This document shows positions 17,288-34,150 of a stretch of DNA of 37,563 nucleotides, in pieces. The stretch is taken from positions 1 to 37,563 of the forward strand of contig NZ_SDVA01000023.1 in NCBI RefSeq assembly GCF_004153545.1. The letters are read 5' to 3'. Below the pieces are notes generated by a model. The model was not told the DNA's origin, made no database searches, and saw nothing but the letters and a program-made list of their open reading frames with translations. The DNA comes from Serinicoccus sediminis (lineage in GTDB: Bacteria; Actinomycetota; Actinomycetes; Actinomycetales; Dermatophilaceae). Within the stretch, counting starts at the first letter, position 1. Every line of letters begins with the position of its first letter. Position numbers and translations under genes: made by a program.

Positions 17288-17838
17288 TGGGTGAGCTGCG
17301 CGAGCACTGGGTCAACCTGCGGACCGCCACCCCCAGCCACCTCCGGGTGCGCCTCGTGGCGCTGGCCGGGGCCGTCGTCGTGGCGCTGAGCCTCGCCGCT
17401 GCCGGCGGTGGCGGCCCCGTGGCGTGGGGCGGCACCGTGCTGCTGGGCGCCCTGGTGGTGCTGCAGCCGGGGGGCATCATGCCGGCGTTCTTCCTCGTGT
17501 GGGCGATCGCCGCCTGGTGGGCGGGCGTGCCGGGCCCCTGGCACTGGGCGCTGCTGCCGGCCGCCTGGGGCCTGCTGCTCGTGCACGCCGGCGCCGCCCT
17601 CGCGGCCTCGGTCCCGCCCCAGGCGACCGTGCCCCGTGCCGTCGTCGTGAGGTATGCCGCCCGCGTCGGCGTCGTCGCGGCGGCGGTCACCCTCGTCTGG
17701 GGTCTCGCGGCGCTGGCGGTCGGGGCCCGGTCCGGCGGCGGCCCGCTGCCCAGCGTCCTGGGGCTGGCCCTGCTGGCCGGGGCTCTGCTCGGCTACGTCC
17801 GCCTCCGCCGCCACCACACCGCACCGGACGCGCCGTAG
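17287..17838 (+). CDS. Polytopic membrane protein of the MoxR operon; C-terminus made by a repeat
   Basis: A 183-residue, very hydrophobic protein with about five or six membrane segments and no recognised domain. Its ATG overlaps the DUF58 stop. The last residues Ala-Pro-Asp-Ala-Pro and the TAG stop are encoded by the first unit of the downstream 22-bp repeat array (17821-17842). The original C-terminus has therefore probably been replaced or extended by the repeat. Confidence 0.7.
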   Translation: MGELREHWVNLRTATPSHLRVRLVALAGAVVVALSLAAAGGGGPVAWGGTVLLGALVVLQPGGIMPAFFLVWAIAAWWAGVPGPWHWALLPAAWGLLLVHAGAALAASVPPQATVPRAVVVRYAARVGVVAAAVTLVWGLAALAVGARSGGGPLPSVLGLALLAGALLGYVRLRRHHTAPDAP

Positions 17839-17908
17839 GACGACACCGGACGCGTGCTCAGCCCGCACCGGACGCGTGCTCAGCCCGCACCGGACGCGCC
17901 GTCGGCCC
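17821..17908 (+). repeat. 22-bp tandem repeat array 1 (4 units)
   Basis: Four units starting at 17821, 17843, 17865 and 17887, an exact 22-bp period, each beginning GCACCGGACGCG. In the sense of the preceding gene the orientation is CACCGGACGCG. The first unit carries the codons for APDAP and the stop of orf17287. There are no spacers between units. Confidence 0.92.
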
Positions 17909-17964
17909 GCGGTCGTGCTGCACGGGCCGGGGTCACCGCATACCTCGCGCCCCTCGCCCCGGCC

Positions 17965-17970
17965 TATGCT
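17965..17970 (+). promoter_or_regulatory. -10 element for the leader ORF and DUF202 pair
   Basis: TATGCT ends 7 nt before the ATG at 17978. Transcription would begin at or next to that ATG. Confidence 0.5.
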
Positions 17971-17977
17971 GGCGCCC

Positions 17978-18013
17978 ATGCACGCGCTCGTCGACCTGAC
18001 CGCCGGGCGATGA
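17978..18013 (+). CDS. 11-codon leaderless leader ORF (MHALVDLTAGR)
   Basis: A short ORF whose ATG sits 7 nt after a TATGCT -10 box and whose TGA overlaps the next start as ATGA (18010-18013). The DUF202 gene has no clear Shine-Dalgarno, so termination-reinitiation from this leader may be how it is translated. No run of one amino acid suggests attenuation. It could also be a chance short frame. Confidence 0.45.
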   Translation: MHALVDLTAGR

Positions 18014-18381
18014 GCGGGGGCCGGTCGCGGCGTCGCTTCCCGCAGTCGGTGTACGCCCTGGGCAGCGACCCGGACCCCCGCTTCAGCCTGGCCAACGAGC
18101 GCACCTTCCTCGCGTGGATCCGCACGGCGCTCGCCTTCCTCGCCGCGGGGGTCGCGCTGGAGGCGCTCGCGGTGCCGATCGCCCCGGGCTACCGGCTGGC
18201 CGCCGCTGCCGTCTTCGTCGTGCTCGGGATGCTGGCCTCGGTGCAGGCGTGGGTGGGGTGGTTCCGGGTCGAGCGGGCGATGCGCGAGGGGCGGACGCTG
18301 CCGCCGCTCACCATCGGTGCCGTCATCGCGGTCGGTGTGCTGCTGGCCATCCTCCTCGTCGCAGTGGGGCTGCTCGCGTGA
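18010..18381 (+). CDS. DUF202 (YidH-like) membrane protein
   Basis: A 123-residue protein with the DUF202 signature DPRFSLANERTFLAWIRTALAFLAAGVAL and three membrane helices (about residues 35-55, 61-81 and 95-120). Biochemical function is unknown; related proteins occur in SPX/VTC-type assemblies and as stand-alone pairs. The start overlaps the leader ORF (ATGA) and the end overlaps the second DUF202 gene (GTGA). Confidence 0.88.
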   Translation: MSGGRSRRRFPQSVYALGSDPDPRFSLANERTFLAWIRTALAFLAAGVALEALAVPIAPGYRLAAAAVFVVLGMLASVQAWVGWFRVERAMREGRTLPPLTIGAVIAVGVLLAILLVAVGLLA

Positions 18382-18734
18382 CCGTCGGACCGGACCGGCC
18401 CTACGACCCCGGGTTGCAGCCGGAGCGCACCCTGCTGGCCTGGCGCCGGACGGCGCTCGCGCTCGCCGTCGTCTCGGCCGCGATCGCGAGGTATGCCGGT
18501 GACCGGCTCGGTCTCGTCGCCGCCGCACTCGTGGGTGTGGTGGGTGTCGCGGGCGCGGCGTGGGCCTACCACCGGGCGACGCAGCGCTACCGCCGGATGC
18601 ATCTGTGGCTGCACCGCGAGGACACGCTCGACGGCGACGGGTTGGCGTTCGTCGTCGCCAGCGCCTCCCTGAGCCTCGTGGCCGTGGCGGCTGCGGTCTA
18701 CGTGCTGCAGGTGGGGCTGCAGAGGCTCGCCTGA
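18378..18734 (+). CDS. Second DUF202 membrane protein
   Basis: A 118-residue protein with a DUF202-type start (YDPGLQPERTLLAWRRTALALAVVS) and three membrane helices. The GTG at 18378 overlaps the previous TGA. Tandem DUF202 genes probably form a hetero-oligomer (inference). The pair is enclosed by 22-bp arrays that face inward from the two neighbouring genes. Confidence 0.85.
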   Translation: MTVGPDRPYDPGLQPERTLLAWRRTALALAVVSAAIARYAGDRLGLVAAALVGVVGVAGAAWAYHRATQRYRRMHLWLHREDTLDGDGLAFVVASASLSLVAVAAAVYVLQVGLQRLA

Positions 18735-18763
18735 GCCGTCACGCCACGAAAGAGGCGGTCGAC

Positions 18764-18895
18764 CTGCCCATCACGCGCTCGGTGCGGTCTGACCACGCGT
18801 CCGGTGTGTCCTGGACGCGCGTCTGGTGTGCTCCGATCACGCGTCCGGTGTGTTCCGACCACGCGTCCGGTGTGTCCTGGACGCGCGTCCGGTGC
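18764..18895 (-). repeat. 22-bp tandem repeat array 2 (6 units)
   Basis: Six units at an exact 22-bp period. On the plus strand the cores CGCGTCCGGTG (with variants) begin at 18774, 18796, 18818, 18840, 18862 and 18884. Read from clpX the orientation is CACCGGACGCG, and the array begins 3 nt after the clpX stop codon. One unit is changed to CCAGACGCG and the distal one has an extra mismatch, consistent with decay away from clpX. Confidence 0.9.
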
Positions 18896-18898
18896 AGG

Positions 18899-20176
<1,278 letters not shown>

Positions 20177-20242
20177 GTGGTCGTCCTTCCTGAGCTCGGG
20201 CCGGGGGTCCGTGGGGCGAGCCGGGCTCGCCCTGTCCGCCCG

Positions 20243-20248
20243 ACGCTA
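20243..20248 (-). promoter_or_regulatory. -10 element of clpX
   Basis: Minus-strand TAGCGT, about 67 nt before the GTG start. It implies transcription independent of clpP1-clpP2, consistent with the terminator between them. Confidence 0.45.
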
Positions 20249-20350
20249 CCTTGCCGGGAGGGGTTTGGGCAGGGTTTTCCGGGCGCCGTCCGCGTGTTGG
20301 CGCTCCCTGTCCGCTGTCAGCGCAACACCTCTGCGGCGTGCGCCGACGTC

Positions 20351-20399
20351 CGGGTATGCCGACGGCCGGGCCGCGCGGGCCCGGCCGTCGGCATACCCG
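20351..20399 (-). terminator. Terminator of clpP1-clpP2 (22-bp stem)
   Basis: A perfect 22-bp stem with a GCGCG loop, ending 7 nt from the clpP2 stop codon. The base of the stem is CGGGTATGCC/GGCATACCCG, the same motif that builds the 22994-23041 hairpin. Confidence 0.85.
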
Positions 20400-20405
20400 C
20401 GGGAC

Positions 20406-21116
20406 TCAGTCGTCCAGCGAGGCCTTGCGCGAGGCGAGCACCTCGTCGACGAGGCCGTACTCCTTGGCCTCGGCGGCGGTGAGGATCTTGTCGCGCTCGA
20501 TGTCCTTCTGGACCTGCTCGGCCGTGCGACCCGAGTGCTTGGCCCAGGTCTCCTCCAGCCAGGTCCGCATGCGCAGCACCTCGTTGGCCTGGATCTCGAT
20601 GTCGGAGGCCTGCCCGTAGTCGCCACCGGCCAGCGCGGGCTGGTGGATGAGCACGCGGGCGTTGGGCAGCGCGAACCGCTTGCCCGGGGCGCCCGCGGCC
20701 AGCAGCACGGCGGCCGCCGACGCGGCCTGGCCGATGACGAAGGTCTGCACGTCCGGCTTGATGTACTGCATCGTGTCGTAGATCGCGGTCAGCGCGGTGA
20801 ACGAACCACCGGGGCTGTTGATGTACATGAGGATGTCGCGGTCCGGGTCCTGGCTCTCCAGCACGATGAGCTGGGCGATGATGTCGTCGGCCGAGGCGTC
20901 GTCGACCTGGACGCCGAGGAAGATGATCCGGTCCTCGAACAGCTTGGTGTAGGGGTCCTGGCGCTTGGTGCCGTAGGAGGTGCGCTCCTCGAACTGCGGC
21001 AGGATGTAGCGGCTGCTCGGCGCGAGCGGCGCCGGGAGCCCGCCACCGGGCTGCGCGGGGGCGGCGCCCATCCAGGCACCACCGGCATACGGGCTCTGCT
21101 GCTGGGGGTAGGTCAT
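20406..21116 (-). CDS. clpP2: ATP-dependent Clp protease proteolytic subunit ClpP2
   Basis: A 236-residue serine protease subunit. The triad is Ser133 ([12 protein letters not shown]), His158 (VLIHQP) and Asp209 (ERDKIL). The ~40-residue N-terminal extension is Gln/Pro/Gly-rich and non-conserved. In actinobacteria ClpP1 and ClpP2 form a mixed two-ring protease. It is the second gene of clpP1-clpP2 with a 37-nt gap. Confidence 0.95.
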
Positions 21117-21153
21117 GGTGAGATCAGCTCTCTTCTCGCGTCTGGGTGGCCGG

Positions 21154-21756
<603 letters not shown>

Positions 21757-21814
21757 GTGCTGCTTTCCCTCGCTTCGTCCGGGGTATGCCGTGCGGCACG
21801 TGTGCTTGTCAGTG

Positions 21815-21820
21815 ACCCTA
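21815..21820 (-). promoter_or_regulatory. -10 element of clpP1-clpP2
   Basis: Minus-strand TAGGGT (TTAGGGTCAC context), about 60 nt before the clpP1 start and about 40 bp downstream of the ClgR box in the direction of transcription. Confidence 0.5.
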
Positions 21821-21859
21821 ACGCCCGGCCCGGTCGCGACACTCCCCCACCGGGGCCGT

Positions 21860-21873
21860 GTTCGCCGTGAGCG
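21860..21873. promoter_or_regulatory. ClgR-type operator upstream of clpP1
   Basis: GTTCGC-CGTGA-GCG matches the ClgR consensus described in Streptomyces and Corynebacterium (GTTCGC, five bases, GCG). ClgR activates clpP1P2 in actinobacteria. The site is centred about 50 bp upstream of the -10 box, a normal activator position. clgR itself is not in the window. Confidence 0.6.
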
Positions 21874-21941
21874 CACTGCCCGCCCCGGCCCGGGCTCCCG
21901 GGCCGGGGCGCCCGTGCGTGTGGGGCCGGCCCCGACCGTTC

Positions 21942-21947
21942 TAGGCT
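21942..21947 (+). promoter_or_regulatory. -10 element of the DMT transporter gene (leaderless)
   Basis: TAGGCT ends 6 nt before the GTG at 21954. There is no Shine-Dalgarno, so the mRNA probably starts at the GTG. Confidence 0.5.
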
Positions 21948-21953
21948 TGACCG

Positions 21954-22883
21954 GTGACCCCCACCTCCCGCACCGACCGCACCTGGCTGGTGGCCCTGGC
22001 CGCCTCGCTCTGGGGGCTCTCCGCCCTCTGGCGCGGCCCCCTCGCCCAGGAGCTGCCGTCCCTGGCCATCGTCTTCTGGGAGCACGTGCTGCTCACCCTG
22101 GCCCTGCTGCCGTGGCTCGTGCCCGCCCTGCGCCGGTGGCGGGCCGCGACGCCGCGCACGCAGGTGAGCGTCCTCGTCATCGGGGCCGGCAGCTCGGCCC
22201 TGGCGACGACCCTGTTCACCGCCGCCTTCCGGCTCGGTGACCCGATCACGCCGCAGGTCCTGCAGAAGCTGCAGCCCTTCATCGCCCTCGCGCTGGCGGC
22301 GGTGCTGCTGGGCGAGCGCCTGCGTCGGTCCTACCTGCTCTTCCTCCTGCCCGCGGTGGTGGGCGCCTGGCTCATGACCTTCGCCGACCCGTTCGCGGTG
22401 AGCGTGAGCTCGGCCCAGGCGGCGCTGCTGGCGCTGGGCGCGGCCGCCCTCTGGGCCGCGGGCACCGTGCTCGGCCGGGGGGCGAGCGCCGAGCTGGGCT
22501 TCGTCGACCTCGCCGCCCTGCGGTTCGCGTTCGGCCTGGTCACCCTCGCGGTCATCGCCGGGTTCACCGGCACCCCGCTCGCGGTCCCGCTGTCGGCCGT
22601 CCCCTCGATCCTCGCCCTCGCCCTGCTGCCGGGGCTCCTGGCGATGACGCTCTACTACCGGGCGCTGCGGCATACCCCGGCAGCGCGGGCGACCCTGGCC
22701 GAGCTGACCTTCCCGCTCACCGCCGCCCTCATCGGGGTCGTCGCGTTCAGCAGCCGCCCGGAGCCGACGCAGTGGCTGGGGATGGTGCTGGTCGTCGCGA
22801 CCGTCGTCGCGCTGTCGCTGCACGAGCAGCGCGCCCCGCAGCCCTCGGTCCGCGCCCCCGCGCACGCCGACGCCCTGCGCTGA
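21954..22883 (+). CDS. EamA/DMT-superfamily exporter
   Basis: A 309-residue protein with about ten membrane helices in two EamA halves. The first starts at [21 protein letters not shown] and has [21 protein letters not shown]; the second has [14 protein letters not shown] and [20 protein letters not shown]. These transporters export amino acids or other small metabolites; the substrate cannot be told. The GTG at 21954 is preceded by a -10 box at leaderless distance. The gene lies between clpP1 (divergent) and tig (convergent), interrupting the usual tig-clpP1 neighbourhood, and ends at a two-tier hairpin. Confidence 0.85.
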
Positions 22884-22993
22884 CCGCCCCACGCCCTCGC
22901 GCGGCCCGCGAGCGCCGACCGTCCCTCCGCCCGACCCCGGGAAGGGCGCGACTGCAGCGGTTGTCCACACCCCCTCCGCACGCAGAAGCGCAG

Positions 22994-23041
22994 GCACCGG
23001 GTATGCCCTGAGATCGCCCTGTCGGGCGGCATACCCGGTGC
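22994..23041. terminator. Bidirectional terminator between the DMT gene and tig
   Basis: A 14-bp outer stem GCACCGGGTATGCC/GGCATACCCGGTGC with an inner GCCC-TGTC-GGGC hairpin. It lies between convergent stop codons (22883 and 23069) and can end both transcripts. Confidence 0.75.
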
Positions 23042-23068
23042 AGCGGCGCACCGTGCGTGGTGAGTGGG

Positions 23069-24478
23069 TCAGGCCTTGTCGGCCGACTCCTCCTCGGTCT
23101 CGACGACCTCGTCGCCCGCCTCGACGACCTCGTCGCCCGCCTCGACGACCTGGTCGCCCGGGGCGACGACCTGGTCGCCCGGGGCGACCTCCTCGTCCGC
23201 GTCGTCCTCGTCGTCACCCTCGATGGCGTCCAGGTCGACGACGTTGCCCTCGGTGTCGGTGACCTTGGCCTGCTCCAGGACGTTCGCCAGCGCCTTGCGG
23301 CGTCCGACCTCGGCCACCATCGCGGGGACCTGGTTCTGCTGGTCGATCTGCTGCGCGAACTGCTGGGCGTTCATGCCGTACTGCTGCGCGGTCATCATGA
23401 TGTACTCGATGAGCTCGCCCTGGTCGACCTCGACCTCGTCGCGCTTGACCAGCGCGTCCAGCAGGAACTGCGTCTGCATGGCCTTCTTGGTCGACTCGGT
23501 CACCTCGGCGCGGTGCTCGTCGTCCTCCAGGCGGTCCTCGCCCTCCAGGTGCCGGTGCACCTCGGCCTCGACGAGGCTGTCCGGCACGGGGATCTCGACC
23601 ATCGCGAGCATGGCCTCGAGGACCTTGTCGCGGGCCGCGACGCCCTGCTCGAAGCGGGCGCCCTGCTCGGCCTGCTGGGCCAGGTCCGCACGCAGCTCGT
23701 CCATGGTGTCGAACTGGCTCGCGAGCTGGGCGAACTCGTCGTCCAGCGCGGGCAGCTCGCGCTCCTTGGCGGCCTGCACGGTGACGGTGACGTCGGCCTT
23801 CTCGCCCTTGCGGTCGCCGCCGGCGAGCGGGGACTGGAACTCCACCGTCTCCCCGGCCTTGGTGCCGCGCAGCGCCGTGTCGAGCCCGTCGAGCATGGTG
23901 CCCGAGCCGATCTCGTAGGAGACACCGGTCACCGAGTCGATCTCCTCGTCGCCGATCACGGCGGAGAGGTCGATGGTGAGGTGGTCGCCGGTCTTGGCCT
24001 TGCGCTTGATCGGCTTGAGGGTGCCGAAGCGCTCCCGCAGGTTGTCGATGCGGGTCTGGACGTCCTCCTCGGACGCCTGGACCGGCTCGACCTCGACCTC
24101 GATGCCGGAGAAGTCCGGGAGGTCGAACTGCGGCACGATGTCGACCTCGGCCTCGAACGCCAGGTCCTGGCCGTCCTCCATGGGCAGCGAGGTGAGGTTG
24201 ACCTCGGGCTGGCTCAGCGGCGTGAGGCCGTTCTCGGTCATCGCCTGCGTGTAGTACTCCGGCAGCGCCTCGTTGACGGCCTCCTGCACCACGGCACCGC
24301 GCCCGAAGCGCTGGTCGATGATCCGGTTCGGGACCTTGCCCTTGCGGAAGCCCGGGATCTGCACGTTGGCGCCGATGCTCTTGTAGGCGGCGTCCAGCCG
24401 GGGCTTGAGGTCGGCGGCGGGGACCTCGACGGTCAGCTTGACCCGGGTCGGGGTCAGGGTCTCGACAGCGCTCTTCAC
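23069..24478 (-). CDS. tig: Trigger factor (ribosome-associated chaperone, PPIase)
   Basis: A 469-residue protein. The N-terminal ribosome-binding domain includes VKSAVETLTPTRVKLTVEV and the tail-docking signature GFRKGKVPNRIIDQRFG. It is followed by a FKBP-type PPIase domain and a C-terminal chaperone domain. The GTG at 24478 is preferred over ATG 24499 because a GGAG lies 9 nt upstream and the family starts with (M/V)KSAVE. The C-terminal ~50 residues are acidic and made of heptads (see the 21-bp repeat). The promoter is TAGCAT at 24564-24569. Confidence 0.95.
   Translation of the reverse strand: MKSAVETLTPTRVKLTVEVPAADLKPRLDAAYKSIGANVQIPGFRKGKVPNRIIDQRFGRGAVVQEAVNEALPEYYTQAMTENGLTPLSQPEVNLTSLPMEDGQDLAFEAEVDIVPQFDLPDFSGIEVEVEPVQASEEDVQTRIDNLRERFGTLKPIKRKAKTGDHLTIDLSAVIGDEEIDSVTGVSYEIGSGTMLDGLDTALRGTKAGETVEFQSPLAGGDRKGEKADVTVTVQAAKERELPALDDEFAQLASQFDTMDELRADLAQQAEQGARFEQGVAARDKVLEAMLAMVEIPVPDSLVEAEVHRHLEGEDRLEDDEHRAEVTESTKKAMQTQFLLDALVKRDEVEVDQGELIEYIMMTAQQYGMNAQQFAQQIDQQNQVPAMVAEVGRRKALANVLEQAKVTDTEGNVVDLDAIEGDDEDDADEEVAPGDQVVAPGDQVVEAGDEVVEAGDEVVETEEESADKA
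23093..23189 (-). repeat. 21-bp minisatellite in the 3' end of tig
   Basis: About four consecutive 21-bp units encode a 7-residue motif, two of the VAPGDQV form and two of the VEAGDEV form. The frame is kept because 21 is a multiple of three. The copy number probably varies between strains and changes only the length of the acidic tail. Confidence 0.75.
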
Positions 24479-24563
24479 TGCTGGTTGCTCCGTTGTCATG
24501 TCGGGGGTATGTCGTGGCCCGCCGGGCACAGGTCGGCTACGGGCGGGCACGCGGATCAGCACC

Positions 24564-24569
24564 ATGCTA
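24564..24569 (-). promoter_or_regulatory. -10 element of tig
   Basis: Minus-strand TAGCAT, directly downstream of the tRNA-Pro 3' end, within the TAGCATGG string also used at ileS. It would give a 5' UTR of about 80 nt. Confidence 0.5.
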
Positions 24570-24571
24570 GG

Positions 24572-24648
24572 TGGTCGGGGTAGCCGGATTCGAACCGGCG
24601 GCCTTCCGCTCCCAAAGCGGACGCGCTACCAAGCTGCGCCATACCCCG
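24572..24648 (-). tRNA. tRNA-Pro (anticodon TGG)
   Basis: A 77-nt cloverleaf on the minus strand. The acceptor stem is CGGGGTA/TACCCCG, the D-arm includes GCGCAGCTTGGTAGCGC, the anticodon loop is CTTTGGGA with TGG, and the T-arm is GCCGGTTCGAATCCGGC. CCA is encoded. It reads proline CCN codons, especially CCA. Confidence 0.97.
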
Positions 24649-24686
24649 TGGTGGGGCGGCGTCACGGCCGCCCGCGGTGGAGGGTT

Positions 24687-24693
24687 TAGACTA
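24687..24693. promoter_or_regulatory. Overlapping divergent -10 boxes between tRNA-Pro and tRNA-Gly
   Basis: TTTAGACTAA reads TAGACT on the plus strand (24687-24692) and TAGTCT on the minus strand (24688-24693). Both fit TANNNT, and each lies about 40 nt from a tRNA. It appears to be a shared AT-rich promoter core for the two tRNAs. Confidence 0.45.
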
Positions 24694-24732
24694 ACTGCTC
24701 GGCCGGGGCACGGAGGACGTCGCGCTGGTCAC

Positions 24733-26588: not shown

Positions 26589-28355
26589 ATGTCTGTCCAC
26601 CACGCCCGTACCCGTCGCCGCTGGGCGGCGCTGACCGCCACGGCGGTGGTGCTGGCCGCGTGCACCCCCGGCGCCGACTCACCCGGCTCGGCGGACGGGA
26701 CGGGGACGCCGACCGGGGCCGAGGGTTCCTCGGACGGCGGCGACCCGACCGGGGACGAGGAGGAGGGCGCCAACACCCTCGTCGCCGTCCCCGTGGCCGG
26801 TCCGGAGCCCGCCGTCCTCTCCGGCGGCACGTCGGCCGAGCTGTCGGTCGAGGCCTCGCGCGCCCTCTTCGAGAGCGCCCCGGTGGTCGTCGTCGCGGCG
26901 CAGGACGAGCAGCTGGCCGCCGCCTCCGCCGGCGTCGCGCTCGGCGTGCCCGTCCTCGTGGACGGCCCCGGAGTGGCTGAGGAGGTGGCGCGGCTCGGGG
27001 CGCGGACAGCCCTCACCGTGGGGCCGGTCGACGACCCTGGCGTCGACGTCCTGGCCGTCACGGACGACCAGGCGCTGGCGGAGGCCCTCGGGACCGAGCC
27101 CGCGGGCGAGCCGGTGCCCGAGGGCGAGCAGGTCCGCGCCCTGGTCGGGCTCGAGCCGGGCGTGGCAGCGCTGCTGACGGGTGTGGACCGGGACGGGGCG
27201 CCGTCCGGCGCCGACACCGACGCCGCGACGCAGACCGCGGGCGACCCGGCCGGGCAGACGAGCGCCCCGGTGGAGCCGCTGGAGTCCGACGTCGAGGAGC
27301 TGCCGGAGACCTCCGCACCGGAGGTGGTCGACGGGGTGACGGTGATGACGACGGGCGCCGACGAGGACGCCGCCGCCGTCGCCTCCGCCCGCGCCGTGGG
27401 GGCGCAGGTGCTCGTCGTGCCGGAGGGCGACCCGCGGGCCACCTCCGAGACGGTGCAGGCGCTCGCCGACGCGGACCCGGGCACCGTGATCGGCATCGGC
27501 GAGGAGTTCGGTGCCGCGCAGACGCTGACCTGGCGGGCGCAGACCGCGGCGACCGGGGTCGAGCTGCCCGGCGGCGGCCAGCTCGTGCTCCCGGGCAAGA
27601 CCTACGTCGCGCTCTACGGCAACCCGACGACGTCCGCGCTCGGCGTGCTCGGGGAGCAGGGCCCCGAGGCCACGGTCGAGCGGGCCGAGCAGGTGGCGGC
27701 ACCGTATGCCGACCTGACCGACGAGCCGGTCGTGCCTGCGCTGGAGATCATCGCCACCGTGGCCAGCTCGGAGGCCGGCGCTGACGGCAACTACAGCACC
27801 GAGATGGACCTGGAGACCCTCCGGCCCCTGGTCGACCTCGCCGAGAAGCACGGGATGTACGTCGTGCTGGACCTCCAGCCCGGGCGGACCGACTTCCTCA
27901 CCCAGGCCAGGAGGTACGAGGAGCTGCTGCGGCGCCCGCACGTGGGCCTCGCGCTGGACCCCGAGTGGCGGCTCGGCCCCAGCGAGGTGCACCTGGAGCA
28001 GATCGGCCAGGTCGACGTCGCCGAGGTCGACGCCGTCGTCGACTGGCTGGCCGACCTCACCCGCGACCACGACCTGCCGCAGAAGATGCTGGTCCTGCAC
28101 CAGTTCCAGACCCGGATGATCCCCGGGGTCGACGAGGTCGACCAGTCCCGCACCGAGGTCGCGGTGCTCATCCATGCCGATGGGCAGGGCGCCCAGGCGG
28201 ACAAGCAGGGCACCTGGCGGACGCTGCACGACCACGCCCCGTCGGTGCCCTACTGGGGGTGGAAGAACTTCTACGACGAGGACCTGCCCGGACCGCTCTC
28301 GCCGGAGGCGACGATGCAGGTCGAGCCGACCCCGGACTTCATCAGCTACCAGTAG
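26589..28355 (+). CDS. Conserved actinobacterial lipoprotein with CWB2-like repeats and C-terminal enzyme-like domain
   Basis: A 588-residue exported lipoprotein. A Lys/Arg-rich start and hydrophobic helix end in the lipobox LAAC with Cys25, followed by an acidic Gly/Ser/Thr-rich linker. Residues ~75-170 and ~255-320 look like two alternating beta/alpha units resembling cell-wall-binding repeat 2 (VALGVPVLVDGPGVAEEVARLG). The C-terminal ~250 residues are the most conserved-looking part: YVALYGNP, GMYVVLDLQPGRTDFLTQA, HVGLALDPEWRLGP, KMLVLHQFQTRMI and YWGWKNFYDEDLPG. The many Asp/Glu/His near strand ends suggest a TIM-barrel hydrolase-like fold (inference). AGGGAG lies 4 nt before the ATG. Function is unknown. 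Confidence 0.75.
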   Translation: MSVHHARTRRRWAALTATAVVLAACTPGADSPGSADGTGTPTGAEGSSDGGDPTGDEEEGANTLVAVPVAGPEPAVLSGGTSAELSVEASRALFESAPVVVVAAQDEQLAAASAGVALGVPVLVDGPGVAEEVARLGARTALTVGPVDDPGVDVLAVTDDQALAEALGTEPAGEPVPEGEQVRALVGLEPGVAALLTGVDRDGAPSGADTDAATQTAGDPAGQTSAPVEPLESDVEELPETSAPEVVDGVTVMTTGADEDAAAVASARAVGAQVLVVPEGDPRATSETVQALADADPGTVIGIGEEFGAAQTLTWRAQTAATGVELPGGGQLVLPGKTYVALYGNPTTSALGVLGEQGPEATVERAEQVAAPYADLTDEPVVPALEIIATVASSEAGADGNYSTEMDLETLRPLVDLAEKHGMYVVLDLQPGRTDFLTQARRYEELLRRPHVGLALDPEWRLGPSEVHLEQIGQVDVAEVDAVVDWLADLTRDHDLPQKMLVLHQFQTRMIPGVDEVDQSRTEVAVLIHADGQGAQADKQGTWRTLHDHAPSVPYWGWKNFYDEDLPGPLSPEATMQVEPTPDFISYQ

Positions 28356-28370
28356 GAGCACGACCGTCCC

Positions 28371-28390
28371 GGCCGCCCCCAGGGGCGGCC
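28371..28390 (+). terminator. Hairpin downstream of the lipoprotein gene
   Basis: GGCCGCCC/GGGCGGCC with a CCAG loop, 15 nt after the stop. There is no T-run, so termination is plausible but not certain. Confidence 0.5.
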
Positions 28391-28481
28391 ATCCATGACG
28401 ACAGGCCCGCCGACCGTGTGCTTGTGTGGCTGGACGGGCGCTCCGACCGGGGCGCCGGACCCGACGGGAAGGAGCCACGTC

Positions 28482-28685
28482 ATGGGGTTCATGGACAAGG
28501 CCGAGGACATGGCCGGGAAGCACGACGAGAAGGTCGACCAGGGGGTCGAGCAGGGCGGCGACTACGTCGACGACAAGACCGGGGGCCAGCACTCCGAGCA
28601 GGTCGACAAGGCGCAGGTCTTCGCCAACGACCGGGCCGACCAGCTCGGCGGCGTCGAGGACGAGGGCGACGACGAGAAGTCCTGA
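28482..28685 (+). CDS. MT0933-like antitoxin-family small protein (orphan)
   Basis: A 67-residue, charged, helix-forming protein starting MGFMDKAEDMAGKH and containing GDYVDDKTGGQHSEQVDKAQ. That is the pattern of the MT0933/Rv0909-like antitoxin family, whose toxin partner in Mycobacterium is Rv0910. AAGGAG lies 8 nt upstream of the ATG, which decides this start against longer frames. No toxin-like gene is adjacent: the lipoprotein is upstream and rpiB is convergent. It may act in another role. A strong terminator follows. Confidence 0.75.
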   Translation: MGFMDKAEDMAGKHDEKVDQGVEQGGDYVDDKTGGQHSEQVDKAQVFANDRADQLGGVEDEGDDEKS

Positions 28686-28720
28686 GCCGACCTCGGCAGG
28701 ACGACACCCCTGCACGACCA

Positions 28721-28753
28721 AGCCCCCGCCCGGACGCACCGGGCGGGGGCTTC
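28721..28753. terminator. Bidirectional terminator between the MT0933-like gene and rpiB
   Basis: A 14-bp perfect stem (AAGCCCCCGCCCGG/CCGGGCGGGGGCTT) with an ACGCA loop, between convergent genes. AA/TT at the stem base gives each strand a short U-run. Confidence 0.85.
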
Positions 28754-28766
28754 ATCGTGCCCGACG

Positions 28767-29234
28767 TCAGCCCTGCGGGGGCAGCGTCCCGTCGGCCTCG
28801 TAGGCGCTCACCATGTCGATGCGCCGCTGGTGCCGCGCGTCCCCGGAGAAGTCGGTCGCCAGGAAGGTGGCGACGATCTCCCGCGCCTCGTCGGTGCTGT
28901 GCATGCGCGCGCCGAGCGAGACGACCTGCGCGTCGTTGTGCTCCCGGGCGAGCCGGGCCAGCTCGGGCCGGTAGGCCAGGGCCGCCCGGATGCCGACGAC
29001 CTTGTTGGCCGCCATCTGCTCCCCGTTGCCGGACCCGCCGAGCACGATGCCGAGGGAGCCCTGCTCCTCGGCCACCGCCCGTGCGGCCCGCAGCACGTAG
29101 ACGGGGTAGTCGTCCTGGGGGTCGAGATCCAGGGGTCCGTGGTCGACCACGTCGTGGCCCTGCTCGGTGAGCCACGTGACCAGGTCGCGCTGCAGCTCGT
29201 AGGCCGCGTGGTCACCGCCGATGTGCACCCGCAT
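28767..29234 (-). CDS. rpiB: Ribose-5-phosphate isomerase B (M. tuberculosis type)
   Basis: A 155-residue RpiB/LacA-family isomerase that interconverts ribose-5-phosphate and ribulose-5-phosphate. HIGGDHAAYELQ is the phosphate-binding start. The loop LGGSGNGEQMAANKV has Glu72 and no catalytic Cys, as in M. tuberculosis RpiB, where Glu75 replaces the E. coli-type Cys. A GAGGAGG ribosome site lies 5 nt upstream of the ATG. It is co-transcribed with the DsbA-fold gene 10 nt upstream. Confidence 0.93.
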   Translation of the reverse strand: MRVHIGGDHAAYELQRDLVTWLTEQGHDVVDHGPLDLDPQDDYPVYVLRAARAVAEEQGSLGIVLGGSGNGEQMAANKVVGIRAALAYRPELARLAREHNDAQVVSLGARMHSTDEAREIVATFLATDFSGDARHQRRIDMVSAYEADGTLPPQG

Positions 29235-29244
29235 GCCGGCCTCC

Positions 29245-29898
29245 TCAGCTGAAGTCCGGGCCCACGGTGCGGGTCCGCTTCATCTCGTAGAAGCCGGGGG
29301 TCTGCGCGACGAGCAGGCAGCCGTCCCACAGCCGGCCGGCGGCCTCGCCCTTGGGCGCCGGGGTGACGACCGGACCGAAGAACGCGATGTCCTCCACCCG
29401 GACGACCGGCGTGCCCACGTCGTCGCCGACGAGGTCGATGGCCCGCTGGTGGCTCGCCCGCAGCGTCTCGTCGTAGGCCTCGCTCCCGCCCGCCTGGGTC
29501 AGGGCCGGGTCCAGACCCAGCTCGTCGAGCACCTCGGCGGTGATGGTGTCGAGCTCCTCGCTGCCGCGTCCCTCGAGGTGGATGCGCTGACCGTAGGCGT
29601 CGTACATCTTCCGGCGCAGGTCGTTGGCCTCGTCCGCGGGCAGGTCGGCGGTGGCCGCGACGATGGTCCGGACCGGGCCCCAGGCGCGGTCGAGCATGGC
29701 GCGGTAGCCCTCGTCGAGGTCGCGCCCCTCGTTGAGCACGGACAGGCTCATGACCGAGAAGGTGATCTCCAGGTTGCGCACCTCCGCGGCCTCCAGCAGC
29801 CAGCGGGAGGTCATCCAGGCCCAGGGGCAGGCCGGGTCGAAGAACATCTCGGCGTGCGTCGTCTCACCGGACTGGGCAGGTGCTTCGTGATGCGTCAT
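29245..29898 (-). CDS. Rv2466c-like mycothiol-type DsbA-fold oxidoreductase
   Basis: A 217-residue DsbA-fold thioredoxin-superfamily protein. The active-site region is FFDPACPWAWMTSRWLLEA, with Cys24 but Ala in place of the second Cys of the CPWC motif of M. tuberculosis Rv2466c. That leaves a monothiol centre. Later motifs match the family: GTPVVRVEDIAFFGPV and a C-terminal FYEMKRTRTVGP. It probably uses mycothiol to reduce nitro or disulfide substrates in the cytosol (inference). The ATG at 29898 precedes the conserved start. It lies upstream of rpiB in a two-gene operon. Confidence 0.85.
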   Translation of the reverse strand: MTHHEAPAQSGETTHAEMFFDPACPWAWMTSRWLLEAAEVRNLEITFSVMSLSVLNEGRDLDEGYRAMLDRAWGPVRTIVAATADLPADEANDLRRKMYDAYGQRIHLEGRGSEELDTITAEVLDELGLDPALTQAGGSEAYDETLRASHQRAIDLVGDDVGTPVVRVEDIAFFGPVVTPAPKGEAAGRLWDGCLLVAQTPGFYEMKRTRTVGPDFS

Positions 29899-29965
29899 GC
29901 GACCATCGTGTCACGGCATACCCTGACCTTCAGCCGCACCTGACGCTCGACGAGGAGACATCTGC

Positions 29966-32566
29966 ATGCCCGGGACCAACCTGACCCGTGACGAGGCCGC
30001 CGAGCGTTCGACGCTCCTCCGGACCGAGTCCTACGACGTGGTCCTGGACCTCGCCCGCGGGCCGGAGACCTTCGCCACGAGCAGCACCGTGCGCTTCACC
30101 TGCACGCGGCCGGGCGGGTCCACCTGGATCGACTTCGTCGGGCCCTCGGTCGAGCGCGTCGTGCTCAACGGCACCGAGCTCGACCCGGCCCGGTCGGTGT
30201 CCGACGGGCGGATCACCCTGCCGGACCTCGCGGAGACCAACGAGCTGGTCGTCGAGGCGACCGGCGCCTACATGAACACCGGCGAGGGCCTGCACCGGTT
30301 CGTCGACCCGGCCGACGGCGAGGTCTACCTCTACACCCAGTTCGAGGTCCCGGACAGCCGGCGGATGTACCCCGTCTTCGAGCAGCCCGACCTCAAGGCC
30401 ACCTTCGCCTTCACCGTGACGGCACCCGCGCACTGGCAGGTCATCTCCAACGAGCCCACCCCCGAGCCGACGCCCGCCGGGCGGACCGATGACGCCGACG
30501 GCGTCGACACCGCGACCTGGGCGTTCCCCGCCACCGCGCGCATCTCGTCCTACATCACCGCGCTGGTCGCCGGGCCGTACGACGTCGTCCGTGACTCGGT
30601 GAGCACGCGGGCCGGCGAGGTGCCGCTGGGCGTCTTCTGCCGACGCAGCCTCACCCCGCACCTGGACGCGGACAACATCCTCGACGTCACCAAGAAGGGG
30701 TTCGCCTTCTTCGAGGAGGAGTTCGACTGCGCCTACCCGTTCACGAAGTACGACCAGATCTTCACGCCGGAGTACAACATGGGCGCGATGGAGAACGCGG
30801 GCTGCGTGACCATCGTCGAGAACTACGTCTTCCGGTCCAAGGTGACCGAGGCGATCGTGGAGCGCCGGGCCCTCACCATCCTGCACGAGCTGGCCCACAT
30901 GTGGTTCGGCGACCTCGTGACCATGACGTGGTGGGACGACCTGTGGCTCAACGAGAGCTTCGCCGAGTGGGCCTCGACGACGGCCCAGGCCGAGGCGACG
31001 CGGTGGACCGACGCCTGGACCACCTTCGGCACCGCCGAGAAGGCGTGGGCCTACCGGCAGGACCAGCTGTCCTCCACCCACCCGGTGGCCGCGGACATGG
31101 TCGACCTGGCCGCCGTCGAGGTGAACTTCGACGGCATCACCTACGCCAAGGGCGCCTCGGTGCTCAAGCAGCTCGTGGCCTACGTGGGGCGCGAGCCGTT
31201 CCGCGACGGGCTGCGCGCCTACTTCGCCAAGCACGCGTGGGGCAACACCACCCTGCGCGACCTGCTCGTCGAGCTCGAGGCGACCAGCGGGCGGGACCTG
31301 AGCTCGTGGAGCCAGGTCTGGCTCGAGACCGCCGGCGTCAACACGCTCACGCCCGAGGTCGAGGTGGCGCAGGACGGCACCATCACCTCGTTGGCGATCG
31401 TGCAGACCACGCCGTCAGAGCACCCCACCCAGCGCCCGCACCGGCTCGCGGTCGGCTGCTACGACCTCGTGGACGGGGCGCTGCGCCGCAGCCACCGGGT
31501 CGAGCTCGACGTGGACGGGGAGCGCACCGAGGTGCCCGAGCTGGTGGGGCGTCCGATGCCCGACCTGCTGCTCGTCAACGACGACGACCTCGCCTACGCC
31601 AAGATCCGGCTCGACGAGCACTCGCTCGCCACGGCCCTGGAGCACCTGCGGGCGTTCGAGGAGTCGCTGCCGCGGGCGCTCGTCCTCGGCGCGGCGTGGG
31701 ACATGACGCGGGACGGCGAGATGGCCGCGAGCGACTACGTGCGCCTCGTGCTCACCGCGCTCCCGGGCGAGACCGACTCGACCCTGCTGCGCGTGCTCAT
31801 CCAGCAGGTGAGCGCCGCCGCGCTCACCTACACCGCGCCCGAGCACCGCGAGGCCGTGGTCGCGCAGCTGACCGCCGGGCTGCGGGAGAGCACCCTCGGC
31901 GCCGACGCCGGCAGCGACGCCCAGCTGCAGCTGGTGACGGCGTGGTCCTCGTTCGCCCGGTCCGAGGAGGACCTCGCCCTGGTGCGGGGCCTGCTGACGG
32001 GGGAGCGCGAGCTGGCCGGGCTGACCGTCGACCAGGACATGCGCTGGACGCTGCTCACCGCCCTCGCGACGGCCGGGGCGGCCGGCGAGGACGAGATCGC
32101 CGCCGAGCGCGAGCGCGACAACACCGCGACCGGCAACGAGAAGGCCGCCCGGGCGCGGGCCGCGGTGCCGACCGCGGAGGCGAAGGAGACCGCGTGGGTC
32201 GACGCGGTGGAGACCGCCGGCCTGTCCAACTCGGTGCTGGCCGCGATGGCCCTCGGCTTCGGGCGGGTGCACGACGAGACGCTGCTGCGCCCCTTCGTCG
32301 AGCGCTACCACGACGTGGTCGGGCAGGTGTGGGACGAGCGCACGCACCACATCGCCGAGTCGCTGGCGGTGGGCTTCTACCCCCTCGCGGTTGCCTCCCC
32401 CGAGCTGCTGCAGGCCAGCGAGTCCTGGCTGGAGGCGCACCCGGACGCCTCGAACAGCCTGCGCCGCACGGTGGCGGAGAACCGCGACGCCGTCGCCCGT
32501 GCCCTGCGCGCCCAGGCCACCGACGCCCAGACCCAGACCCCGACCCCGACCCCGACCCAGGGCTAG
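29966..32566 (+). CDS. pepN: Aminopeptidase N (M1 family zinc metallopeptidase)
   Basis: An 866-residue cytosolic aminopeptidase. The exopeptidase motif GAMEN is in YNMGAMENAGCVTI. The zinc site is HELAH (307-311) with Glu330 in NESFAEW. Domain order is the beta-saddle, the catalytic thermolysin-like domain, then the helical C-terminal domain. The last residues are a Gln/Thr/Pro low-complexity tail from a GACCCC-type hexanucleotide repeat (about 32529-32576). A GAGGAG ribosome site lies 8 nt before the ATG. A 22-bp array begins 18 nt after the stop. Confidence 0.96.
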   Translation: MPGTNLTRDEAAERSTLLRTESYDVVLDLARGPETFATSSTVRFTCTRPGGSTWIDFVGPSVERVVLNGTELDPARSVSDGRITLPDLAETNELVVEATGAYMNTGEGLHRFVDPADGEVYLYTQFEVPDSRRMYPVFEQPDLKATFAFTVTAPAHWQVISNEPTPEPTPAGRTDDADGVDTATWAFPATARISSYITALVAGPYDVVRDSVSTRAGEVPLGVFCRRSLTPHLDADNILDVTKKGFAFFEEEFDCAYPFTKYDQIFTPEYNMGAMENAGCVTIVENYVFRSKVTEAIVERRALTILHELAHMWFGDLVTMTWWDDLWLNESFAEWASTTAQAEATRWTDAWTTFGTAEKAWAYRQDQLSSTHPVAADMVDLAAVEVNFDGITYAKGASVLKQLVAYVGREPFRDGLRAYFAKHAWGNTTLRDLLVELEATSGRDLSSWSQVWLETAGVNTLTPEVEVAQDGTITSLAIVQTTPSEHPTQRPHRLAVGCYDLVDGALRRSHRVELDVDGERTEVPELVGRPMPDLLLVNDDDLAYAKIRLDEHSLATALEHLRAFEESLPRALVLGAAWDMTRDGEMAASDYVRLVLTALPGETDSTLLRVLIQQVSAAALTYTAPEHREAVVAQLTAGLRESTLGADAGSDAQLQLVTAWSSFARSEEDLALVRGLLTGERELAGLTVDQDMRWTLLTALATAGAAGEDEIAAERERDNTATGNEKAARARAAVPTAEAKETAWVDAVETAGLSNSVLAAMALGFGRVHDETLLRPFVERYHDVVGQVWDERTHHIAESLAVGFYPLAVASPELLQASESWLEAHPDASNSLRRTVAENRDAVARALRAQATDAQTQTPTPTPTQG

Positions 32567-32584
32567 ACCCAGACCTATACCCCC

Positions 32585-32716
32585 GCACAGGACGCGCGCC
32601 CAGGCCGCACAGGACGCGTGGTCCGACCACTCCGGACGCGCGCCCGGGCCGCACAGGACGCGTCGCCCGACCACTCCGGACGCGTCGCCCGACGACTCCG
32701 GACGCGGGTTCGGCGT
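32585..32716 (+). repeat. 22-bp tandem repeat array 3 (6 units, mixed subtypes)
   Basis: Units start at 32585, 32607, 32629, 32651, 32673 and 32695. Three begin GCACAGGACGCG and three begin ACTCCGGACGCG, interleaved, so the array mixes two subtypes. The orientation is GGACGCG in the sense of pepN. A unit such as 32607 has GGAC-GCGTG-GTCC self-complementarity. Confidence 0.9.
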
Positions 32717-32760
32717 CCTGATGTGCGCCGATCCACACCCCGGTCTGCCGCCGGCCTTCA

Positions 32761-32768
32761 TCCACAGG
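32761..32768 (+). other. TCCACAGG motif upstream of the AbiEi-like gene
   Basis: TTCATCCACAGGAT contains the octamer that also lies upstream of the DUF559 gene (7915, opposite strand). It is close to a DnaA-box core (TCATCCACA) and 50 bp before the start codon. Confidence 0.4.
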
Positions 32769-32818
32769 ATGGTCCAGAGGCCTGGTCGTGCCCGTGGTCG
32801 AGACAGAGGCTGAGTGGC

Positions 32819-33910
32819 ATGGACCTCGCCGCCCTGCCCTCGGTCTTCAGCCGCCGGTTCGCCCTCGATTCCGGTATGTCGTCCCGCGAGCTCACCGAGC
32901 TGCTCCTGCTCGGCGAGCTCGCGCGGGAGTCGAGGAGCTGGTTCCGCCGGCCCCGTGCCGGCGTGCAGCCCGGTCAGGAGGAGTGGCAGCGGGTGCAGGG
33001 CGAGCACCTCGACCGCCTGCAGTGTCAGCTGCAACGCTTCCCCGGGCACGTGGCCAGCCATACCAGCGCCGCCCTGCTGCACGGGCTCGCCGTCACGGTC
33101 TCCCCCGACGCCCCGGTCGAGCTGACCGTCCTCGAGGGCGCGCAACGATCCCGGACGCTGCCCGGCGTGATCCTGCACCACTGCGACTCCGCCGGCACGG
33201 AGGTCGCCGTCGTGGACGGGCTGCGCACCACCGACCTGCTCAGGACGGTCGCCGACACCGCGCGCACCCGCCGGCTCCCGCACTCGACGGCACTGGTGGA
33301 CGACGTCCTGCGCCGGGGCATGCTGACCACGTCCGACCTGCGCAAGCAGCTCGACCAGCAGAAGCGGTGGAGGGGACGCCCCAAGGCCGTCGCCGCGCTC
33401 GCGTTGTCCGATCCGCGGCGCGAGACCTGGCTGGAGTCGTTCTCCTTCGTCACGTTGCACGAGCGCGGGCTCCCGATCCCGCTCTCCCAGGTCGACATCT
33501 TCGACGAGGACGGCAGGTTCCTCGGCAGGACGGACGGGCTGCAGCCGGAGTCCGCGTCGTTCTACGAGGCGGACGGGCGTGGCAAGTACTTCCTCGACCA
33601 GTCCGAGACCGTCTCACCCGAGCAGTCGGTCCGTGGCCGCCTGGAGGCCGAGCAGCGCCGGCACGGTTGGCTCTGCGGGATCGGTCTGCGCGGGGTGCGC
33701 TGGACCAGCGACGAGATCATCGGTGACCCGGAGTCGGTGGCGAGCCGCGCGAAGCAGGTGCTCGGACCCCCACCGGCACCCGTCCGAGGGTATGCCGTGT
33801 GGAACGGCGAGCGCCGTCGTCTGCCGTTCTCCGCGGACCGTCCGGCGGTCGACCTGGAGCAGATCTACGTCACCCGCCGCATGCGTGAGCGGGCACGCCG
33901 TACCTCCTGA
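32819..33910 (+). CDS. AbiEi-like/DUF559-related protein of unknown function
   Basis: A 363-residue protein. The N-terminal part (SRRFALDSGMSSRELTELLLLGEL) resembles the winged-helix AbiEi-type antitoxin domain. It continues with SHTSAALLHGLAV and a LRTTDLLRTVADTARTRRLPHSTALVDDVLRRG segment typical of these proteins. The C-terminal part (QVDIFDEDGRFLGRTDGL, then EADGRGKYF) is a Vsr/DUF559-like core in which Asp and Glu-x-Asp-Gly survive but the region is divergent. No AbiEii nucleotidyltransferase toxin is adjacent. The ATG at 32819 begins the conserved region. 22-bp arrays lie on both sides, and it is a distant relative of the gene at 7965. Confidence 0.7.
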   Translation: MDLAALPSVFSRRFALDSGMSSRELTELLLLGELARESRSWFRRPRAGVQPGQEEWQRVQGEHLDRLQCQLQRFPGHVASHTSAALLHGLAVTVSPDAPVELTVLEGAQRSRTLPGVILHHCDSAGTEVAVVDGLRTTDLLRTVADTARTRRLPHSTALVDDVLRRGMLTTSDLRKQLDQQKRWRGRPKAVAALALSDPRRETWLESFSFVTLHERGLPIPLSQVDIFDEDGRFLGRTDGLQPESASFYEADGRGKYFLDQSETVSPEQSVRGRLEAEQRRHGWLCGIGLRGVRWTSDEIIGDPESVASRAKQVLGPPPAPVRGYAVWNGERRRLPFSADRPAVDLEQIYVTRRMRERARRTS

Positions 33911-33930
33911 CCACGATTCATCTCCACCCG

Positions 33931-34150
33931 TTGCCGACCACGCGTCCGGTGCGGCCTGAGCGCGCGTCCGGTGCGGCCCTAGCGCGCGTCCGGTGCGGCC
34001 AGACCACGCGTCCGGTGCGTCCTGAGCGCGCGTCCGGTGCGGCCAGACCGCGCGTCCGGTGCGGCCAGACCGCGCGTCCGGTGCGTCCTGACCACGCGTC
34101 CGGTGCGGCCAGACCGCGCGTCCGGTGCGGCCCTAGCGCGCGTCCGGTGC
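33931..34150 (-). repeat. 22-bp tandem repeat array 4 (10 units)
   Basis: Ten plus-strand cores CGCGTCCGGTG begin at 33941 and recur every 22 bp without exception to 34139. Read from malQ the orientation is CACCGGACGCG, and the first unit encodes the malQ C-terminus (APDAR) and stop. Internal variation is confined mainly to the 10 bases between cores. Several units can form CCGGAC-GCGYG-GUCUGG hairpins in RNA. Confidence 0.95.

What the first reader, a model, noticed from the sequence alone, without database searches (positions are those of the whole stretch)
17821..34150. Four arrays of an exactly 22-bp tandem repeat fixed to gene 3' ends
Seen in sequence: arrays at 17821-17908 (4 units), 18764-18895 (6), 32585-32716 (6) and 33931-34150 (10). 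The period is 22 bp without slippage, even where bases differ. The core is CACCGGACGCG or a close variant, with 10 more variable bases. All four sit directly at the 3' end of a gene (orf17287, clpX, pepN, malQ) and all have the same orientation relative to that gene. Fixed phase, fixed orientation and fixed position argue against random minisatellite growth. A transcript-level role (3' end formation, stability, protein binding) or targeted spread is more likely. I do not recognise the repeat as a named family.
Basis: partly seen in the sequence, partly recalled or inferred. Interest (0 to 1): 0.8.

Follow-up and report, generated by a model that had tools for sequence, protein, structure and literature searches.

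The report
Phased repeat arrays at gene ends
Bacteria of the Serinicoccus group carry dozens of short, precisely spaced repeat arrays, mostly at the ends of ordinary genes, with a spelling that changes between species; they look like rows of landing sites for a protein that has not been identified, perhaps marking where genes stop.

Summary
The four arrays are real, at the stated places, with period 22 bp. They belong to a genome-wide family: 201 repeat pairs against 15 for the reversed control. Of 40 arrays examined in the window's genome, 18 lie between convergent genes, 13 sense and 5 antisense between co-directional genes, 3 between divergent genes, 1 inside a gene. The 3'-end rule is thus strong (36 of 40) but not absolute, and the orientation rule only a tendency. 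Eleven core bases (CACCGGACGCG) are nearly fixed while the other eleven drift (4% versus 21% between neighbouring units). No compensatory pairing, unusual fold or T-run supports an RNA terminator. The genome holds a second family of period 32, and related species carry their own spellings at 22 or 32 bp; 240 kb from four genomes outside the genus had no intergenic array. At least 27 of 40 arrays have an array beside the same gene in related species, so they are not hopping. Best reading: helically phased binding sites for an unidentified DNA-binding protein, possibly punctuation at gene ends. Nearest published relatives are the GGGAATC repeats of Xanthomonas. Function is inferred, not shown.

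The parts
17822..17909 (+). Array 1: 4 units of 22 bp (CACCGGACGCG + 11), core on the strand of the upstream gene
18763..18894 (-). Array 2: 6 units of 22 bp at the 3' end of clpX, in the convergent gap
32586..32717 (+). Array 3: 6 units of 22 bp (cores CACAGGACGCG / CTCCGGACGCG) after pepN
33930..34149 (-). Array 4: 10 units of 22 bp at the 3' end of malQ, in the convergent gap
17836..17838 (+). TAG stop codon of the gene 17287-17838, inside unit 1 of array 1 (C-terminus ...APDAP*)
34133..34135 (-). TAG stop codon of malQ, inside unit 1 of array 4 (C-terminus ...APDAR*)
17287..17838 (+). Gene ending in array 1 (183 aa, no Pfam match)
18899..20167 (-). clpX, ending 4 bp before array 2
29966..32566 (+). 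pepN-like M1 aminopeptidase, ending 19 bp before array 3
34133..36256 (-). malQ (GH77 4-alpha-glucanotransferase), ending inside array 4
18378..18734 (+). DUF202 gene, convergent with clpX; array 2 also faces its 3' end
32819..33910 (+). Gene convergent with malQ (363 aa, no Pfam match); array 4 also faces its 3' end

Best explanation
The arrays are rows of binding sites, read as double-stranded DNA, for an unidentified sequence-specific protein. Each unit offers one nearly invariant 11-bp core; spacing of about two (22 bp) or three (32 bp) helical turns puts the cores on one face of the helix so that copies of the protein can bind cooperatively, as on plasmid iterons. They sit mostly at gene ends, in the 22-bp family above all between convergent genes, where the bound row would act as punctuation: a roadblock that stops RNA polymerase running into the neighbour, and perhaps a place where transcription supercoils are handled. 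The core spelling has changed between species together with the presumed protein (dialects). Shown: period, core conservation, position, conservation between species, species-specific spellings. Inferred: that a protein binds, that it reads DNA rather than RNA, co-evolution, and the roadblock function.
For: Core positions 1-11 differ in 4.1% and positions 12-22 in 21.4% of neighbour comparisons (333 pairs from 99 arrays found by TRF and kept if CGGACG occurred at least twice), so the core is constrained. Nothing points to RNA structure: pairing in the variable half equals shuffled columns (z -0.7 to 1.8 over 7 column pairs, 287 distinct units); mean fold z is -1.04 sense and -0.98 antisense (40 arrays) against -0.82 for 80 ordinary gene ends. 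Intergenic 9-mer recurrence in same-genus genomes outside the CACCGG species peaks at 32, 22, 54 and 43/44 with 14 at 27 and fewer than 8 at 37 and 48; coding DNA peaks at multiples of 3. In G000, 18 of 39 arrays outside genes are in convergent gaps against 37 of 231 background gaps (p = 7e-5) and 3 of 39 in divergent ones against 61 of 231 (p = 0.008). All 9 opposite-strand array pairs that passed the filters face inward. At least 27 of 40 arrays recur at the same gene in related species. Antisense and divergent positions exist, and most of those in G000 are kept between species, which suits a DNA element better than a 3' UTR element.
Against: No binding protein was identified and no expression data were available. 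The families are few and related, so the helical series may be coincidence; recurrence peaks at 8, 15, 23 and 29 and TRF periods 23, 29 and 51 do not fit it well. The preference for the sense strand (13 to 5) would suit an RNA role. Avoidance of promoters and genes alone could place arrays at convergent gaps. The convergent preference is weak in the 32-bp family of G010: 4 of 18 distinct arrays, with 3 between divergent genes and 1 inside a gene. Two divergent arrays lie 22-49 bp from both start codons, where a roadblock would be awkward. Arrays are more stable as RNA than their immediate flanks, on both strands.
Confidence: 0.4

Rival explanations
1. Minisatellites without host function: short duplications grow by slippage wherever they do no harm, which is at gene ends and in convergent gaps, and occasional copying spreads one spelling over the genome.
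For: Neighbouring units within an array often share their variable half (listings), as local duplication predicts; divergent gaps and coding regions are avoided; arrays overwrite the last codons of genes (malQ ends ...APDAR* in the 5 genomes of the CACCGG clade and in none of the 19 others shown).
Against: The core is five times more conserved than the other half; positions are kept between species, in the same orientation wherever this could be told; neutral growth does not predict inward-facing pairs or the same periods under different spellings.
Confidence: 0.25
2. RNA-level 3' UTR element: the transcribed repeats bind a protein or Rho and set the 3' end or the stability of the mRNA.
For: 31 of 40 arrays have the core in sense to the gene on their 5' side; of these 31, 18 begin 3-19 nt after the stop codon and 5 start exactly 17 nt before the gene end.
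Against: 5 of 18 co-directional arrays are antisense and 3 of 40 lie between divergent genes, most of them conserved; no sense preference in the 32-bp family of G010; no covariation and no T-runs. Rho dependence itself was not tested.
Confidence: 0.15
3. BIME-like supercoil or chromosome-folding sites: arrays recruit gyrase or a nucleoid protein at convergent gene ends where positive supercoils collect.
For: Enriched between convergent genes in G000; inward-facing pairs; thin in the middle 45% of the G012 contig (5 of 33 arrays, positions read by hand from listings, p = 3e-4).
Against: Species-specific spellings would require a fast-changing general protein; no palindromic pairing and no RAYT in 31 genomes. 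This reading overlaps the best explanation and cannot be separated from it here.
Confidence: 0.15

Closest known systems
GGGAATC / GGGGA(C/T)T intergenic repeats of Xanthomonas and Nostoc (PMC4692102; passages and sections 15-16 read)
   Same: Dispersed tandem repeats, mostly intergenic, close to or overlapping stop codons, under-represented between divergent genes, pairs in convergent orientation (Xanthomonas), mostly kept between the same genes in two related species with length variation, random gene classes, function unknown.
   Different: Unit 7 bp, preferably 4 copies, G-quadruplex forming; here units are 22 or 32 bp without G-tract in the core, half of the 22-bp unit nearly fixed, several spellings in one genus.
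REP / BIME elements (PMC3733652; passages read)
   Same: Extragenic, many copies, between co-directional and convergent genes; E. coli REPs are gyrase targets.
   Different: Not palindromic; no RAYT gene in 31 genus genomes.
MIRU and other VNTRs of Mycobacterium tuberculosis (PMC2734929; passages read)
   Same: Dispersed tandem arrays in intergenic gaps.
   Different: MIRU units are 40-100 bp; here 22 or 32 bp with a fixed core, mainly at gene ends.
Plasmid iterons (PMC4980987; passages read)
   Same: Direct repeats of 17-22 bp (22 bp in R6K and pPS10), bound cooperatively; a half-turn shift abolishes cooperativity.
   Different: Many chromosomal arrays at ends of unrelated genes instead of one plasmid origin.
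DNA uptake sequence dialects of Neisseriaceae (PMC3630211; search listing only, rest recalled)
   Same: Short genome-wide motif whose spelling differs by species with its receptor.
   Different: Here the motif is in phased tandem arrays at gene ends; no uptake link tested.
Sal-box / Reb1 roadblock terminators of rRNA genes (PMC11358750, PMC12366685; search listing only, rest recalled)
   Same: Repeated binding sites for a DNA-binding protein at gene 3' ends.
   Different: Eukaryotic; used only as a functional analogy.

Membership tests
GGGAATC-type gene-end repeats | Heptameric G-rich unit able to form G-quadruplexes | tested here: not met
   Unit is 22 or 32 bp; core CACCGGACGCG has no run of three G.
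GGGAATC-type gene-end repeats | Intergenic, near stop codons, inward-facing pairs | tested here: met
   36 of 40 face a gene 3' end; 9 of 9 opposite-strand pairs face inward.
REP / BIME | Palindromic unit | tested here: not met
   No pairing above shuffled columns in the variable half; core is asymmetric.
REP / BIME | RAYT transposase in the genome | tested here: not met
   PF01797 in 0 of 31 genus genomes; control rings in 5 of 14. Not decisive: CGTC REPs also lack a dedicated transposase (PMC3733652 abstract passage).
REP / BIME | Gyrase binding | not testable with these tools
   Needs ChIP or cleavage mapping.
MIRU | 40-100 bp unit | tested here: not met
   Period 22 and 32. Homology to MIRU sequence itself was not searched.
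Iterons | Direct repeats at whole helical turns with conserved core | tested here: met
   22 bp (about two turns) in 150 of 153 steps; core conservation. Binding not tested.
Iterons | At a replication origin next to a Rep gene | tested here: not met
   40 arrays on many contigs beside clpX, malQ, pepN and other genes; Rep genes were not searched for beside every array.
Intrinsic terminators | Stable hairpin followed by a T-run | tested here: not met
   Longest T-run 1-3 in 40 of 40 arrays plus 40 nt; fold z near control.
Rfam RNA families | Covariance-model match at gathering score | tested here: not met
   Only two tRNAs in the window.

The most novel reading that the evidence does not exclude
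A whole bacterial genus uses a gene-end punctuation code: a fast-evolving DNA-binding protein (or several) and its genome-wide arrays of helically phased sites co-evolve as species dialects, and the bound rows end transcription between convergent genes without a hairpin or Rho site.
Probability: 0.22. Interest if true: 0.9.

Novelty: new variant of a known kind. Interest (0 to 1): 0.66.

Why it matters
Gene-end repeats have been seen in unrelated bacteria without a known function. Here one genus offers a natural experiment: several spellings, two coexisting periods, arrays kept at the same genes over species, and one species (G030) nested among array-rich ones in which both inspected arrays have shrunk to remnants. 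That makes the question of what reads such arrays directly testable. If a protein-based roadblock is confirmed, it would add a new way of ending transcription in high-GC bacteria.

Tried and rejected
RNA hairpin in the variable half (GTGGTC-N-GACCAC looked suggestive): no covariation. Intrinsic terminator, or a hairpin just after the array: not supported; single examples of hairpins between facing arrays were seen by eye. REP/RAYT: no RAYT. Reverse-transcriptase-driven spread: RVT_1 in 7 of 31 genomes, not in the window's own. Phage or plasmid origin: no match in viral contigs for an exact 22-bp pair or 32-bp pair pattern; none in plasmids for array 4 (the only array asked). Replication polarity as for KOPS/Chi: strands look mixed along G012 in the listings; no test was run. 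Stop-cassette idea (period not divisible by 3): dropped because periods 33, 51 and 54 also occur. Candidate binding protein: not found; Pfam of ten genes at divergent, antisense or in-gene arrays gave a tyrosine recombinase, a GntR regulator and enzymes but no pattern. In print: searches showed me no report of these repeats in this group; only open-licence papers are held and only the listed results were looked at.
Full report
Observation. The four arrays are present, with units of exactly 22 bp and 4, 6, 6 and 10 copies. The genes are clpX, an M1 aminopeptidase (pepN), malQ and a 183-aa protein without Pfam match. In arrays 1 and 4 the stop codon TAG lies inside the first unit, the gene ending 17 nt into the array, with C-termini ...APDAP* and ...APDAR*.

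Genome-wide family. The window is contig C20 of a 3.55 Mb genome (G000). The pair CCGGACGCG-N13-CCGGACGCG occurs 201 times with up to 2 mismatches (reversed control 15) and 144 times with up to 1 (control 0). Of 57 relatives, five of 30 in the same genus are rich in it (G004 52, G012 122, G028 187, G029 99, G030 22); the other 25 and the 27 outside the genus have 0-2 each. G004's units have a different second half. A three-unit exact scan of the genome-contig collection (84,980 species; records of the window's own genome may be left out) gave 48 stretches: 47 from Serinicoccus chungangensis CD08_5 and an uncultured Serinicoccus (2B2-67), and one from Streptomyces flavofungini, a three-unit 22-bp array starting 2 nt after a called stop codon. 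G028 is S. chungangensis by matching contig coordinates; NCBI places it in Ornithinimicrobiaceae.

Position. Genes were called with a codon-usage script of my own, not a standard annotator. The listing is cut at 100 places; it is sorted by mismatches, so the places with an exact pair are all in it. I fetched those and the arrays of the listed one-mismatch places, not the rest. Of the 40 arrays so found in G000, 18 lie between convergent genes, 13 sense and 5 antisense between co-directional genes, 3 between divergent genes and 1 inside a gene (DUF3866). Two of the 5 antisense arrays are 153-196 bp from the stop they face. Against 231 gaps of 20 bp or more in 400 kb of evenly spaced stretches of the sister species G012 (37 convergent, 133 co-directional, 61 divergent), convergent gaps are enriched (p = 7e-5) and divergent ones depleted (p = 0.008). 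Spacing is 22 in 150 of 153 steps in G000, 71 of 72 in G012 and 238 of 246 in the two named genomes; the chain finder prefers 22, but Tandem Repeats Finder, which does not, agrees. Co-directional arrays were 3 sense and 3 antisense in G012, 18 and 9 in the named genomes. The orientation rule is therefore a tendency.

Facing pairs. Where two arrays lie within 400 bp on opposite strands, they face inward in 9 of 9 cases that passed the filters (one further pair is on the same strand). Some are the same locus in different species, so I count 6-7 independent loci. Pairs that the filters dropped (L088, L096, L105, L113; L246, L257) also face inward. In the 22-bp family the close pairs are separated by 25-27 bp at three loci, one of them in G004.

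What is conserved. In 436 units, positions 1-11 and G18 are nearly fixed (units were chosen with at most 2 core mismatches). In 99 arrays found by Tandem Repeats Finder (kept if CGGACG occurred at least twice), neighbouring units differ at 4.1% of core and 21.4% of other positions. Base pairing inside the variable half is at the level of shuffled columns. Mean fold z-scores are -1.04 (sense) and -0.98 (antisense) in 40 arrays against -0.82 in 80 control gene ends; no array plus 40 nt has a T-run above 3. Arrays are somewhat more stable than their own flanks on both strands. This looks like constraint on sequence rather than on RNA structure.

A wider phenomenon. Of 24 genus genomes whose malQ 3' end was printed, 5 belong to the CACCGG clade; among the 19 others, 8 have another TRF array just after malQ, of period 22 (G002, G025), 32 (G001, G003, G006, G010, G016) or 41 (G017). 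Motif-free 9-mer recurrence in intergenic DNA of same-genus genomes outside the clade and G004 peaks at 32 (515), 22 (143), 64 (100, twice 32), 54 (95), 29 (70), 8 (65), 15 (64), 23 (60) and 44 (59), shuffled mean 1.0; coding DNA shows multiples of 3. A few genomes (G010, G011) supply most of the count at 32. Several cores contain ACCGRVCG; others do not (G001, G002, G017, G025 and the CGAAACCTCC repeats of G006 and G010). Three ACCGRVCG cores at 22-bp spacing occur in 11 of 31 genus genomes (9 of them with 12 or more matches), at 32-bp spacing in 19 of 31 (13 with 12 or more), reversed controls 0 throughout. In 297 genomes of the order, of which only G000 and G026 belong to the genus, other genomes had few matches: five with 1-2 at 22 bp and two with 3-4 at 32 bp, at least three of these seven being repeats of a shorter unit; the reversed control also matched in two and three genomes, up to 5 times. 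G000 itself holds the 32-bp family (51 matches), with consensus CACCGRGCGYCGCnnRTGGTnGC plus about nine variable bases (31 distinct units from several genomes, first 12 positions fixed by my pattern). Positions of 32-bp arrays: G000 7 (3 convergent, 2 sense, 1 antisense, 1 divergent); G010 18 distinct of 20 rows (4 convergent, 4 sense, 6 antisense, 3 divergent, 1 inside); G011 5 (1 convergent, 3 sense, 1 antisense). So there is no orientation preference in G010 and only a weak convergent one. In stretches taken at round coordinates (one, L237, chosen to include malQ), 20 genus genomes (1,540 kb) gave 46 intergenic arrays of period 18 or more, two of them pieces of one 71-72 bp array that looks like a CRISPR; 7 of the 20 genomes gave none. 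Four genomes outside the genus (240 kb) gave none. Of the 46, 21 lay in convergent, 22 in co-directional and 3 in divergent gaps.

History. A malQ+clpX tree of 26 genomes puts the CACCGGACGCG species together: G000, G012, G029, G028, G030 (support 1.000; G004 was not in the tree). G030 is nested inside, yet its malQ and clpX arrays are reduced to one or two units and its genome count is 22 against 99-187 in the other four, while its 32-bp family remains (47). At least 27 of 40 G000 arrays have an array beside the same gene in the fetched loci of G012, S. chungangensis or 2B2-67; 19 of the 27 match in the same orientation only, and the other 8 sit in loci with two arrays, where both orientations are matched. 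Four of the 5 antisense and 2 of the 3 divergent arrays are among the 19. The count is a lower bound because those loci were fetched for arrays; a neighbour at 65% identity or more was accepted, so a paralogue could slip in. The arrays are old and stay in place.

Mechanism. I favour DNA-read binding sites on whole helical turns, by analogy with iterons, where a half-turn shift abolishes cooperative binding (PMC4980987, passages), acting as punctuation at gene ends. The binding protein and the function are inferred. Alternatives are neutral minisatellites, an RNA 3' UTR role, and BIME-like supercoil sites. The published GGGAATC repeats of Xanthomonas and Nostoc share position, inward-facing pairs and conservation between species, and also lack a known function (PMC4692102, passages and sections 15-16). 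In G012 only 5 of 33 arrays (positions read by hand) lie in the middle 45% of the contig (p = 3e-4), which the noisy GC skew of 20 stretches suggests is the terminus half.

Limits. No expression data; own gene caller; listings truncated; families related, so the helical series of periods is suggestive only. That I know no report of these repeats rests on searches of an open-licence library.

Noticed in passing
L179-L198 (G012, 400 kb); window: The 8-mer GGTATGCC/GGCATACC occurs 118 times in 400 kb of G012 against a mean of 14.9 for 150 permuted 8-mers, and 20 times in the window; also strong in G011 (63 against 4.2) and G007 (59 against 3.6), near background in G010 and G015. In G012 95 of 118 lie in coding DNA, with a preferred frame. 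Unexplained.
   Followed up: partly
L250:3153-3225 and L257:3119-3190 (G010): Two inward-facing array pairs enclose the same perfect palindrome containing GTATGCC...GGCATAC, close to the over-represented 8-mer.
   Followed up: no
L038:2557-2611: A three-unit 22-bp array with the same core 2 nt after a called stop codon in Streptomyces flavofungini, the only hit outside Serinicoccus in the named-species scan.
   Followed up: partly
L098:3029-3160: An array lies between a divergent pair, 29 bp upstream of a tyrosine recombinase gene; an array beside the same gene neighbourhood exists in strain 2B2-67 (L040).
   Followed up: no
L264:16698-19638 (G027): Two long arrays of 71-72 bp period, probably one CRISPR array, with reverse transcriptase matches on both sides in that genome (G027:C1:1614609-1615271 and 1621160-1621762).
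   Followed up: no
L123:279-458, L122:4704-4842, L120:4669-4820: A 51-bp intergenic repeat near malQ in G012, G028 and G030, which does not look like the ACCG families.
   Followed up: no
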